Source of the DNA: Bdellovibrionales bacterium Ga0074139
Lineage (GTDB): Bacteria > Bdellovibrionota > Bdellovibrionia > Bdellovibrionales > Bdellovibrionaceae
Direction: 5' to 3'
DNA: 64,000 bases
NCBI GenBank assembly: GCA_001464795.1
Contig: LNEB01000014.1
Location: 186,001 to 250,000, forward strand
Shown here: one piece after another, positions 22,731 through 26,539 of the stretch
Layout: each line of letters starts with the position of its first letter
Numbering within the stretch: position 1 is the stretch's first letter
The notes under the pieces: model-generated
The model's input: only the letters and a program-made list of their open reading frames with translations
What the model was told of the DNA's origin: nothing
Databases searched by the model: none
Position numbers and translations under genes: made by a program

Positions 22731-23393
22731 ATGAGCATGAACGCAAATACGTTGGGTGTGAACATGACAACAGATACCAGTAGTAAAACAAAAAAGTCGA
22801 AGACAATGCTTCAACTTAAAGCTCCAACTCAGGAAAGATCACGACAGACTGTGTCTACTATTCTTGAGGCCTGTGAACGCATTATGGTTCGCGAGGGTTT
22901 CTACGGAGTCACAACTGATAAAATTGCAAAAGAAGCTGGTGTCAGCATTGGTTCACTTTATCAATTTTTTGGGAATAAAGAATCAGTCGTTTCTGCTTTA
23001 ATCCATGAACTTATTCGCCGCGACAGTGTCTATTTCCAAGAACGAATTACTACGATTCATCAAATACCTGAGGATCAAAGAATTCATTTCTTGATTCAAT
23101 TGGGCCTTGAAATATATTCGACTCAAAAAGATTTACGACAAAAAATCCAAGGGATTTATCAGTATCTAGTTGATCAGGCAGAGTTCAGAAAAATCATATC
23201 CGTTTATACCGATTCTTTTGCTGCACACATTCAACCTAAGAACAACCGTGAGGCACGAATGATGGCAAAACTAACAGTTTCGGCCTTTATTGGACTTATG
23301 GAACAGGTTGTTTTAGAAAATCCGAACTTCATGCAAGACCAAAAGTTAGTTGATGAAATTAAACGAATGTTTTTAGACTATCTTTGTAAGTAA
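22731..23393 (+). CDS. TetR-family transcriptional regulator
   Basis: The 220-residue protein has a basic N-terminal extension (1-33), then the TetR helix-turn-helix (about 35-80; TDKIAKEAGVSIGSLYQFF is the recognition region), then an all-helical ligand domain. The ligand is unknown. AAGGAAGG precedes the first ATG, which sets the start. No obvious target sits next to it: the downstream neighbour dacB is convergent with a 16-bp overlap and the upstream neighbour is the carboxypeptidase. A small palindrome in the promoter suggests autorepression. Confidence 0.9.
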   Translation: MSMNANTLGVNMTTDTSSKTKKSKTMLQLKAPTQERSRQTVSTILEACERIMVREGFYGVTTDKIAKEAGVSIGSLYQFFGNKESVVSALIHELIRRDSVYFQERITTIHQIPEDQRIHFLIQLGLEIYSTQKDLRQKIQGIYQYLVDQAEFRKIISVYTDSFAAHIQPKNNREARMMAKLTVSAFIGLMEQVVLENPNFMQDQKLVDEIKRMFLDYLCK

Positions 23394-24790
23394 TGTTTTT
23401 CTAAAATTTCATCCATCACTTCTCTGGCTAGACTGGCATCACCTGGCCCATTGTAGATAAAGACAAACGCAGATGAACTTTGCTGATGATCAATGTATCC
23501 TGCCAAGCTTGTAACACCATTAAGTAGCCCTGTTTTGGCCCTTACTTTACGAAGCATTTGTTTATCTTTGAATCTTTTCTTAAGAGTGCCATCAACTCCA
23601 CCTATTGGTAACGAACTTAACATTTCTGGTTGAGTAGAAAAATTATGCTTGTGGTAATCAAGTATCTTCCACAGTGCAAATGTTGAGATTCGGTTTTCTC
23701 GTGTTAAACCAGAGGGATTTATAATTTTAAATTCATCATTACTAAGTCCTAATGATTTAAGGTGTTGCCTGACGACTTCAATGCCTTCTGACATTTTTCC
23801 CTGTGAAGACTTCGTTAAAGCCAATTGCTTCGTTAGCATTTCTGCCACGTAATTATTAGAGAACTTATTCATATCAGCTAAAATCAATTCGGCAGGTTTG
23901 CTTTCTGATTCTGCTAATACCGTATGATTAGAAGAAGCCACACCAGTTTTAATGTTGCCTTTAACTACAATCCCTCTTTGAGCCAGAAAAGATTTTAAAT
24001 TGTGTCCTGACCACAAATCAGGATGATTAATATTAGCAAAAACAACATGCTCTTTGATATTTTTTCCGATTTTTCCTCTGACAGTGAATATTTCTTTTTT
24101 TGCAGAACTATCCCATCTGCGGTCCACATCGATTGACAATGCCGAACCTGAAACAGTTTTAACTTGGTTGATAAGGGTGTAATAATCTGACTCTGGATCT
24201 AAAATAACTTTTGCTGACGCATTTTCTGTTGGGCGAATGTAGACGTTCAGTGAGTTCCAATTAAAAGACATGGCACCCACAGGAGCATCGTAAGCCCGGT
24301 CGACCCTGACACTTTCACGTGATGAATCAAAACGAACAGAATCAAACAACGAATCATCCACAACAACCGAGCCTTCGATCACTTTGATACCTGTCCTTGC
24401 AAATTGATTGGCAAGAAACCACATATTTTCTGACACAAAGGAAGGGTCACCGCCACCCACGAGATACAAATCTCCTTTTAAAACTTGTCCTTCAATTTTT
24501 GCAGGGCTTGATAAGCGAGTTTTAAATTTTGTACCTGGTGGTAAAAATTCAAGAACTGCAGAAGCTGTCATGAGTTTTGTTATCGATGCAGGAAGCATCA
24601 TTTGATCTGAGCGATGACTAAGAATGGGCTTTGCTTCGTCATTGGCCCAATAAAATGAAAAGTGATCGGGATTCATTTTTTTTGCCTTAATCAGGCTTAA
24701 AGACCAGTCACTGGAAGCATGGGCTTGGTCGATAAAAAGCTGAGATAATACGATCACGGACCAGATAGAAATAATTTGAATGAGTCTCAC
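23378..24790 (-). CDS. dacB: D-alanyl-D-alanine carboxypeptidase/endopeptidase (PBP4, S13)
   Basis: DacB-type enzymes trim or cleave cross-linked peptidoglycan peptides in the periplasm. The 470-residue protein has a signal peptide (about 1-25) and S13 motifs: SITK at 69-72 (catalytic Ser69), SNNYVAEML near 311 and AKTGLLNG near 418. In predatory Bdellovibrio, DacB-like enzymes act on prey wall as well as self wall; whether this one does cannot be told from sequence. The 3' end overlaps tetR by 16 bp. The divergent lspA-like gene starts 36 bp away. Confidence 0.93.
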   Translation of the reverse strand: MRLIQIISIWSVIVLSQLFIDQAHASSDWSLSLIKAKKMNPDHFSFYWANDEAKPILSHRSDQMMLPASITKLMTASAVLEFLPPGTKFKTRLSSPAKIEGQVLKGDLYLVGGGDPSFVSENMWFLANQFARTGIKVIEGSVVVDDSLFDSVRFDSSRESVRVDRAYDAPVGAMSFNWNSLNVYIRPTENASAKVILDPESDYYTLINQVKTVSGSALSIDVDRRWDSSAKKEIFTVRGKIGKNIKEHVVFANINHPDLWSGHNLKSFLAQRGIVVKGNIKTGVASSNHTVLAESESKPAELILADMNKFSNNYVAEMLTKQLALTKSSQGKMSEGIEVVRQHLKSLGLSNDEFKIINPSGLTRENRISTFALWKILDYHKHNFSTQPEMLSSLPIGGVDGTLKKRFKDKQMLRKVRAKTGLLNGVTSLAGYIDHQQSSSAFVFIYNGPGDASLAREVMDEILEKHYLQR

Positions 24791-24825: not shown

Positions 24826-25785
24826 ATGAGCATGAACCGAAAATTATGGTTTCAGGTGTACATACCTGTCCCTTTACTTATTCTGTTAGATTCATGGAGT
24901 AAAAGTCTAGCGCTACATTACTCTCATGGACAAGAAGGACCCTTCGGTCATTTCTATTTAATTTTTAATCATGGTGCCATGCTTGGTTTATTTTCAGAAT
25001 TACCCCCCACATTAAGAATTGTTTCACTTTCAACCTTTGGCGCTTTAATTGTGGGAGTTTATTTTTTATTTCAATACCTGATTCCTGGAACACACATGAA
25101 ATTGCGTGTGGGCTTGTCAATTTTATTGGGTGGAATTCTAGGAAATGTTTGGGACCGCATCCGTTACGGGGCCATCATTGATTTTCTAAAATTTAACGTG
25201 AATACCTACGTGAGTCCTATTTTTAATATTGCCGACGTCACACAATGGGTGGGCTACGGAGTCATCGTTTATTTTTTTGCACGCGAAGGTCAATCCTTGT
25301 GGCCAGAAAAAAATTCTCGCAAATCTTTTATGGTCAATGCTCCTTTTCAAAAGCGCTTTAGTTTATTCTTAGCCTTTATTTCTTTGATTCTAACCGGAAT
25401 CTTTGTCGTTTTTTGCTACACTTACTTAAGGGTCACTTTACAAGAATTGACTGCCGCTAATAATCAAATCGTACAAAAATTTGTTAGACCCTTTGCTATA
25501 TTAATTTTAGCATTGGGTTTTGGCTTTTCATTGTTAATTTATATCCTTGGGGGATTGTTTTCACACCGCATAGCAGGACCCATTTATGCTTTTGAAAGAT
25601 TCTTGAGGGAAACCATGAAAGGTCAAAAATCGTCGTTTCGTGTCAGACAAAGTGATGAGTTCAAACATTTAGAACCACTGGCCATTGAAATTTCTGAAAA
25701 GTTTAGCTCTCTGACTGAATCGGCTCTGCTTCAGACAAATGCTGAAGATAAAACCGCTTTTTTGTCGAATCCAGAAGACAAATAG
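24826..25785 (+). CDS. lspA: Lipoprotein signal peptidase LspA fused to a HAMP-like module
   Basis: Residues 1-155 are a complete LspA: Asn48 in FNHGAMLG, catalytic Asp119 in RYGAIIDF and Asp137 in FNIADV, with four membrane segments. LspA cuts prolipoprotein signal peptides. Instead of stopping near residue 165 the protein continues with two more membrane helices (about 178-200 and 222-245) and a HAMP-like linker (about 246-298; RIAGPIYAFERFL and DEFKHLEPLAIEIS). No kinase, cyclase or chemotaxis domain follows. The reading frame is unbroken, so this is a true fusion. The 3' end overlaps the convergent exonuclease by 83 bp. Confidence 0.85.
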   Translation: MSMNRKLWFQVYIPVPLLILLDSWSKSLALHYSHGQEGPFGHFYLIFNHGAMLGLFSELPPTLRIVSLSTFGALIVGVYFLFQYLIPGTHMKLRVGLSILLGGILGNVWDRIRYGAIIDFLKFNVNTYVSPIFNIADVTQWVGYGVIVYFFAREGQSLWPEKNSRKSFMVNAPFQKRFSLFLAFISLILTGIFVVFCYTYLRVTLQELTAANNQIVQKFVRPFAILILALGFGFSLLIYILGGLFSHRIAGPIYAFERFLRETMKGQKSSFRVRQSDEFKHLEPLAIEISEKFSSLTESALLQTNAEDKTAFLSNPEDK

Positions 25786-26539
25786 CTGACAAATAATCTC
25801 CGTCTGGATTTCTAACTATCCCCAATGGAAAAATAGGCCGCATCTTGTTAGCATGGGAGCCTTTATTATAAAGAATGTTCAGTTTCTTTTTTAACTCTAA
25901 CGCTTCTACAATAGCTTGATGAGCCAATGACTTTGGAAACTTCAGACTGTAATAAGGCCATTCGATTTTCTTTTCTTGAAGATCTAGAACCGTTTGGATT
26001 GATGCATCCTCTGGTAATTGCTTCAAGCAGTGAAGTCCCACTTCTAAGCAAGCTTTCGCATCATCCGAGGCTCTGTGAGCCGTTCCACCATCAATTTTTA
26101 GATACTGAACAAGTGTTTGCAGTTTGTGGTTGATCGTTCCTTTAATCAACTTACGTGATATCAAGCTTGTACAAAAGACAGGCGTATGGGGAAGCTGGAG
26201 TCCATGCTTTTCATAACTGTAGCAAATAAATCCCATATCAAATGGTGCATGATGGGCCATAACAATGGAGTCTTTCATAAAATCAGAGATTTTATTGATG
26301 ACCGATTCCATTGGCGGACAACTTTCGACCATTTCATTGGTAATGCCGTGAATTTTAATTACAAAGTCACCCATAGGAAAACGTGGCTTAATTAAAATTT
26401 GCAATTGATCTACGATTTGACCTTGAAACCATTTTACGGCACCAAATTCTACGATTTCACTGCCAACTGGGTAGGCTCCCGTTGTTTCAGTATCAAATGC
26501 TACCAGTGGAAAATCTGCCCAAGGTCGAGTCCTGTCCAT
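25703..26539 (-). CDS. DnaQ-like DEDDh 3'-5' exonuclease
   Basis: The N-terminal 175 residues are an exonuclease domain of the Pol III epsilon type: FDTETTG (Asp16, Glu18), AHHAPFDMGF and HRASDDAKACLEV give the D-E-D-h-D residues. The remaining 100 residues are a separate domain with SHANKMRPIFPLG and an NPDGDYLSA segment that I cannot assign. The protein is too long to be a bare epsilon subunit, and a role in repair or RNA trimming is equally possible. The gene stands alone. Confidence 0.85.
   Translation of the reverse strand: MDRTRPWADFPLVAFDTETTGAYPVGSEIVEFGAVKWFQGQIVDQLQILIKPRFPMGDFVIKIHGITNEMVESCPPMESVINKISDFMKDSIVMAHHAPFDMGFICYSYEKHGLQLPHTPVFCTSLISRKLIKGTINHKLQTLVQYLKIDGGTAHRASDDAKACLEVGLHCLKQLPEDASIQTVLDLQEKKIEWPYYSLKFPKSLAHQAIVEALELKKKLNILYNKGSHANKMRPIFPLGIVRNPDGDYLSAICLLDSTKKRFYLQHLSEAEPIQSES

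What the first reader, a model, noticed from the sequence alone, without database searches (positions are those of the whole stretch)
24826..25785. LspA signal peptidase fused to a two-helix HAMP-like module
Seen directly: catalytic residues Asp119 and Asp137, and Asn48, lie in a normal LspA core, and the same frame continues with two further membrane helices and a HAMP-like linker, but no output domain. Known: LspA is normally about 160 residues with four helices. Inference: the extra module may link lipoprotein processing to a membrane signal, or may dimerise the enzyme. I have not seen this combination described.
Basis: partly seen in the sequence, partly recalled or inferred. Interest (0 to 1): 0.65.

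Follow-up and report, generated by a model that had tools for sequence, protein, structure and literature searches.

The report
Second LspA peptidase with HAMP tail
Predatory-type bacteria of the Bdellovibrio group carry a second copy of the enzyme that trims lipoproteins, permanently joined to a two-helix HAMP signalling module, and it may process a special class of lipoproteins with an unusual cutting site.

Summary
ORF 24826-25785(+) is an intact LspA (signal peptidase II) core joined in frame to two more predicted membrane helices and a HAMP domain, with nothing after it. It is not an assembly error: the fusion is present in 57 of 60 genomes searched (own plus close relatives) and in 53 of 54 sampled genomes of the order. 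It also occurs patchily elsewhere in the phylum. All 14 LspA signature positions are kept. The catalytic Asp119 and Asp137 are invariant in 58 sequences. The window's genome also has a normal ileS-linked lspA. Fused and unfused LspAs are split by one well-supported tree branch.

What it does is not shown. The best lead is new. Outside the order, the gene touching lspA-HAMP encodes, in 16 of 35 loci, a predicted lipoprotein with an atypical lipobox ([FYL]-[NQT]-[NQH]-C). Proteins with the same box (FQNC) number at least 12 in the window's genome; none was found in three fusion-less genomes from other families. One in-order genome has the box but no detected fusion, a counter-example. In the order the gene sometimes follows a REC-GGDEF gene and a solute-binding lipoprotein gene.

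I propose a dimeric second signal peptidase II for this lipobox class.

The parts
24826..25785 (+). LspA-HAMP fusion gene, 319 aa; conserved start is probably Met3 at 24832
24826..25302 (+). LspA (SPase II, peptidase A8) core, residues 1-159; D22 K26 N48 G50 G103 N107 D110 R111 I117 D119 F133 N134 A136 D137
   Evidence: Pfam E 9e-23; Foldseek/VIA to LspA 5dir, 6ryo, 6ryp, Z about 15; signature list from PMC6952399
25180..25182 (+). catalytic Asp119
   Evidence: invariant in 58 sequences
25234..25236 (+). catalytic Asp137
   Evidence: invariant in 58 sequences
25303..25350 (+). conserved cytoplasmic linker, residues 160-175 (P160, R165, N171, FQ175); the N..FQ motif recurs in a stand-alone module
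25339..25449 (+). helix TM5, residues 172-208
   Evidence: AF2 models
25462..25617 (+). helix TM6 running into HAMP AS1 (SHRIAGP), residues 213-264
   Evidence: AF2 models; profile match to TM2-HAMP
25618..25668 (+). HAMP connector, residues 265-281, with R274/D277/F279 motif (HAMP 'DE' position)
25669..25764 (+). HAMP AS2 helix, residues 282-313; no output domain follows
23378..24790 (-). dacB / PBP4 (Peptidase_S13), divergent conserved neighbour (67 of 81 loci)
25703..26539 (-). DnaQ-like exonuclease (RNase_T), convergent conserved neighbour (64 of 81 loci); overlaps the fusion's 3' end by 83 bp

Best explanation
It is a second, catalytically intact lipoprotein signal peptidase (SPase II) whose C-terminus is a two-helix HAMP module. 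Shown: LspA core with the full active site, HAMP-like tail, deep conservation, and a separate canonical LspA in the genomes checked. Inferred: the HAMP tail pairs two LspA domains in the membrane as a parallel dimer and sets their activity or partner choice. Inferred: the enzyme's main substrates are lipoproteins with an atypical lipobox [FYL]-[NQT]-[NQH]-C (FQNC in Bdellovibrionales, YN[QH]C in a related family), in which Asn, Gln or His replaces the usual Gly/Ala/Ser before the lipidated Cys. The housekeeping LspA would serve the ordinary lipobox.
For: Core and active site. Distinct subfamily: the NCBIfam lspA equivalog cut-off (73.95 bits) is passed by canonical LspAs (134.9 and 129.3) and failed by all four fused proteins tested (57.8, 44.1, 43.8, 65.3); one branch (99/93) separates fused from unfused copies. 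HAMP. Substrate lead: in 35 fused loci outside the order, 16 of 33 same-strand directly adjacent ORFs have the atypical box, against 1 of 143 non-adjacent ORFs. The linked proteins are of at least four unrelated kinds (a cytochrome-like YNQC protein, a DUF4331 protein, a beta-propeller and an unknown). Four 200-264 kb samples gave no atypical box in 784 ORFs, and -1 Asn in only 1 of 22 boxes. The window genome has at least 12 N-terminal FQNC proteins among 28 FQNC matches examined, and G007 has 5 of 28; fusion-less genomes of other families have 0 of 30, 0 of 20 and 0 of 7.
Against: G057, a 98% complete MAG of the order with no detected LspA-HAMP, still has 12 FQNC proteins; its dnaQ lies on a 4.6 kb contig with a different neighbour, so both true loss and an assembly gap remain open. 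Within the order the FQNC genes are not beside lspA-HAMP. 19 of 35 outside loci have no adjacent atypical box. Adjacency counts are inflated by shared ancestry (11 of the 16 are one orthologous operon). Crude FQNC counts do not cleanly follow fusion presence outside the order. Lipoboxes were called by a simple rule, not a trained predictor, and no biochemistry exists.
Confidence: 0.45

Rival explanations
1. A signalling device: LspA-HAMP reports lipoprotein traffic or occupancy through its HAMP to a partner, namely the REC-GGDEF diguanylate cyclase encoded directly upstream in some lineages, so lipoprotein maturation is tied to c-di-GMP.
For: REC-GGDEF gene within 2.7 kb upstream, same strand, in 14 of 75 loci and usually within about 80 bp; an SBP_bac_5 lipoprotein gene in 24; an ordered trio with overlapping or closely spaced genes in 6. 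The pattern needs at least 7 changes on the tree, so it is spread over separate branches. HAMP domains normally transmit signals. One homologue (L209) carries an AhpC/TSA domain after the HAMP.
Against: Most loci, including the window, Bdellovibrio bacteriovorus and the outside-order loci checked, lack the REC-GGDEF neighbour. No output domain in cis. GGDEF proteins are common, so neighbourhood alone is weak.
Confidence: 0.2
2. A redundant second LspA with ordinary substrate range; the HAMP tail is only a dimerising or stabilising appendage.
For: All signature residues kept; canonical lspA present in parallel; FQNC proteins exist in G057, where the fusion was not found.
Against: Deep, near-universal retention of the fused copy across the order beside canonical LspA argues for separate jobs; nonrandom adjacency to atypical-lipobox genes; fused cores form their own branch and fail the lspA equivalog cut-off.
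Confidence: 0.25
3. Pseudo-enzyme scaffold or sensor that only binds prolipoproteins and does not cut them.
For: Fusion with a signalling-type module.
Against: Both catalytic aspartates and the other active-site residues tested are invariant in 58 diverse members.
Confidence: 0.06
4. Assembly or annotation artefact joining two genes.
For: None found.
Against: Same frame without stops in 57 of 60 genomes, including single-contig ones; conserved linker residues.
Confidence: 0.01

Closest known systems
LspA / signal peptidase II (peptidase family A8; PF01252, TIGR00077; PDB 5dir, 6ryo, 6ryp, 9emz)
   Same: Fold, four-helix core, catalytic Asp dyad and all 14 signature positions (Ile for Val at one)
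   Different: Two extra helices plus HAMP; scores below the NCBIfam lspA equivalog cut-off; second copy not next to ileS
HAMP domain of sensor kinases and chemoreceptors (PF00672; PDB 3zrw, 4i5s, 4cq4, NarQ 5iji)
   Same: TM helix continuing into AS1, proline, connector with D/E, AS2; structural and profile match
   Different: Below Pfam detection; no kinase, cyclase or MCP output; periplasmic hairpin too short for a sensor domain
Stand-alone two-helix HAMP-like proteins of the same genomes (e.g. L066:2965-3408)
   Same: F-Q motif before TM1, SHRIAGP after TM2, about 150 aa, 25% identity to the module; weak hits to WalK and HAMP models
   Different: Not fused to LspA; function unknown
Multiple LspA copies in Myxococcus xanthus (from own knowledge, not tested)
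   Same: A predator with several LspA paralogues
   Different: Not known to me to carry a HAMP fusion; not compared here

Membership tests
LspA / signal peptidase II | Match to the A8 family profile over the core | tested here: met
   PF01252 81.5 bits, cut-off 25
LspA / signal peptidase II | Catalytic Asp dyad and conserved D/K/N/G/N/D/R/V/F/N/A residues | tested here: met
   14 of 14 positions (Ile for Val116) against the list of PMC6952399
LspA / signal peptidase II | LspA fold | tested here: met
   Z about 15 to 6ryp, 6ryo, 5dir
LspA / signal peptidase II | Cleaves lipidated prolipoproteins before Cys, inhibited by globomycin | not testable with these tools
   needs an assay
lspA equivalog (TIGR00077, housekeeping) | Score above curated cut-off 73.95 | tested here: not met
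   57.8 bits in the window protein; 44.1, 43.8 and 65.3 in three relatives; canonical copies 134.9 and 129.3
lspA equivalog (TIGR00077, housekeeping) | About 160 aa, next to ileS | tested here: not met
   319 aa, beside dacB; the ileS-linked copy is another gene
HAMP domain | Pfam PF00672 above cut-off | tested here: not met
   no hit at E 1 for the fused module; one stand-alone homologue at E 0.12
HAMP domain | TM2-AS1-connector-AS2 layout and profile similarity | tested here: met
   AF2 layout; hhalign probability 87.5%, reversed control 2.3%
HAMP domain | HAMP fold in structure comparison | tested here: inconclusive
   3zrw Z 7.2 and 4i5s Z 7.1 at 2.7-2.8 A, but helical bundles give middling Z easily
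HAMP domain | Parallel four-helix dimer that transmits a signal | not testable with these tools
   no multimer prediction or assay

The most novel reading that the evidence does not exclude
A dedicated lipoprotein-maturation system: a HAMP-bearing second signal peptidase II paired with its own lipobox code ([FYL][NQT][NQH]C, 'FQNC'), analogous to dedicated sortase or exosortase/substrate pairs, so that one bacterium runs two parallel lipoprotein-processing lines, one of them possibly regulated through HAMP and c-di-GMP.
Probability: 0.4. Interest if true: 0.8.

Novelty: new variant of a known kind. Interest (0 to 1): 0.62.

Why it matters
Lipoprotein maturation is generally pictured as one unregulated assembly line with one LspA. 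A second LspA with a signalling module, retained across a whole order that includes the predator Bdellovibrio, and genetically tied elsewhere to lipoproteins with a different cutting site, would mean that processing can be split by substrate class and perhaps switched. It gives a direct test in Bdellovibrio bacteriovorus, where the gene is present, and a marker (FQNC) for lipoproteins that the usual lipobox rules may miss.

Tried and rejected
Assembly error: rejected. Pfam and PDB sequence searches with the C-terminal module gave only chance-level hits. Foldseek with the isolated module gave nothing significant; only the VIA re-alignment showed HAMP chains. A single-sequence search of genome contigs found nothing; the alignment search worked. 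Literature: no paper on an LspA-HAMP protein or on FQNC in Bdellovibrio in the held library. Idea that FQNC is common to all genomes of the phylum: rejected (0 of 57 matches N-terminal in three other-family genomes without the fusion). Idea that crude FQNC DNA counts alone track the fusion across the phylum: not clean.

Full report
Observation. The ORF at 24826-25785(+) encodes 319 aa. Residues 17-150 are a Peptidase_A8/LspA core (E 9e-23). The predicted structure of the whole protein matches solved LspA structures (6ryp, 6ryo, 5dir; Z about 15, 139-155 residues). The 14 highly conserved LspA positions listed in PMC6952399 are all present, with Ile for one Val: D22, K26, N48, G50, G103, N107, D110, R111, I117, D119, F133, N134, A136, D137. 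In 58 fused homologues the catalytic D119 and D137 and also D22, K26, N48, N107, D110, R111 and N134 are invariant.

The extra module. Residues 172-208 and 213-264 are long helices that can span the membrane; residues 265-281 form a connector and 282-313 a third helix. This is the layout TM - TM/AS1 - connector - AS2 of a HAMP module. Pfam HAMP does not reach even E 1 on the fused modules. A profile comparison with 30 bona fide TM-HAMP segments taken from six genomes aligns end to end with probability 87.5% (P 3.6e-6), while the reversed profile gives 2.3%. The isolated C-terminal model realigns with HAMP structures: WalK model 9a5d Z 8.9, HAMP-DHp 3zrw Z 7.2 at 2.7 A over 62 residues, 4i5s Z 7.1 at 2.8 A over 66, Af1503 Z 6.7, NarQ Z 5.3. 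These Z values are modest for helical proteins, so I treat HAMP as well supported, not proven. Stand-alone proteins of about 150 aa with the same F-Q / SHRIAGP signature exist in these genomes, and one of them hits WalK (E 6e-6) and, weakly, the HAMP model. No output domain follows in the window.

Not an artefact, and a second copy. The fusion is found in 57 of 60 genomes of the own genus, family and order. The three misses are G001 (67% complete), G015 (81% complete, contig ending inside the neighbouring dnaQ) and G057 (98% complete). In the wider sample 53 of 54 in-order genomes have it; the exception, G210, is a 1.2 Mb genome. About 30 of 138 other genomes of the phylum also carry fused copies, some of them two. 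Named carriers include Bdellovibrio bacteriovorus and Bdellovibrio sp. qaytius. The window's genome also has a 178-aa canonical LspA directly after ileS, 31% identical to the fused core. A tree of 57 fused and 31 unfused cores separates the two by one branch, support 99/93, in 98% of bootstrap trees. Canonical copies pass the NCBIfam lspA equivalog cut-off; the four fused proteins tested fail it.

Neighbourhood inside the order. Of 81 loci, 67 have dacB/PBP4 divergent and 64 a DnaQ-like exonuclease convergent; motB and motA follow in 39 and 34. In HD100 the housekeeping dacB is bd3244 (PMC3276566), so the HD100 copy of LspA-HAMP may lie beside it; I did not look this up. In part of the order a REC-GGDEF gene (14 of 75 loci with enough upstream sequence) and an SBP_bac_5 lipoprotein gene (24) lie upstream on the same strand; six have both, with overlapping or closely spaced ends. 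The window lacks both.

Neighbourhood outside the order: the lead. In one family the operon reads Tat-exported protein, cytochrome-like protein, lspA-HAMP, TPR protein. The cytochrome-like protein begins with a signal peptide ending in Y-[NT]-[QH]-C or F-N-H-C in all 11 members. In three other families the touching gene begins with L-Q-N-C or F-Q-N-C (L209, L229, L230, L232, L238), and these proteins are unrelated to each other by Pfam apart from the three orthologues L229/L230/L232. With one fixed rule, 16 of 33 directly adjacent same-strand ORFs have such a box, against 1 of 143 other ORFs in the same loci. The Fisher value of 9e-13 overstates independence, since there are about four independent protein types. 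Random stretches of four genomes gave none in 784 ORFs, and Gly, Ala or Ser precede the Cys in 16 of 22 candidate boxes there.

The same box in the window's genome. FQNC codons occur 30 times in G000. Of 28 examined, 12 are N-terminal after a hydrophobic stretch, in proteins of several unrelated families, some with PA14-like or cytochrome-like similarity. G007 (a relative in the same family) has 5 of 28. Fusion-less genomes of other families have 0 of 30, 0 of 20 and 0 of 7. The counter-example is G057: no fusion detected, yet 12 of 26. Its dnaQ sits on a 4.6 kb contig beside another gene, so loss and assembly gap are both possible.

Mechanism. Shown: an intact aspartyl-peptidase site in a conserved LspA-HAMP protein that coexists with normal LspA. 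Established knowledge: HAMP domains form parallel dimers and relay conformational change; LspA cuts before a lipidated Cys that usually follows Gly, Ala or Ser. Inferred: LspA-HAMP works as a dimeric SPase II whose HAMP part sets activity or partners, and its preferred substrates carry the [FYL][NQT][NQH]C box. The signalling reading (REC-GGDEF partner) is a rival that could also be true together with it. I rate the substrate claim near even odds.

Novelty. No description was found in the held literature; the library is incomplete. The protein is a new variant of LspA, not a new fold or chemistry.

Noticed in passing
window 25703-25785: The convergent DnaQ-like gene overlaps the 3' end of lspA-HAMP by 83 bp; the last 24 residues of LspA-HAMP are not conserved.
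   Followed up: partly
L209:2431-3888 (-): LspA-HAMP protein of 485 aa with an AhpC/TSA redoxin domain after the HAMP: one lineage does have a C-terminal domain.
   Followed up: partly
L228:1858-3822 (-): LspA-HAMP ORF runs on in frame into an outer-membrane-like protein with its own signal-like stretch; a real fusion or a lost stop, not resolved.
   Followed up: no
L066:2965-3408, L065:2971-3615, L272:1455-1944: Stand-alone two-helix HAMP-like proteins of unknown function in the same genomes.
   Followed up: partly
L071, L247, L249: A third LspA type (GAFL.MG motif, about 160-175 aa) in some genomes, separate from both the ileS-type and the HAMP type in the tree.
   Followed up: partly
L188, L193, L198, L202, L206 (G014:C22): One 1838-aa ORF carries at least ten HAMP domains in tandem.
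   Followed up: no
L211, L212, L213, L214, L215 and relatives: Conserved operon of a Tat-exported protein with no Pfam match, a cytochrome-like lipoprotein, LspA-HAMP and a TPR protein.
   Followed up: partly
L104, L121, L135, L144, L146, L148: SBP_bac_5 lipoprotein - REC-GGDEF - LspA-HAMP gene trio with overlapping or closely spaced ends.
   Followed up: yes
L091 (CALQIT020000013.1): A contig labelled Streptomyces griseus MAG clearly belongs with Bdellovibrionales.
   Followed up: no
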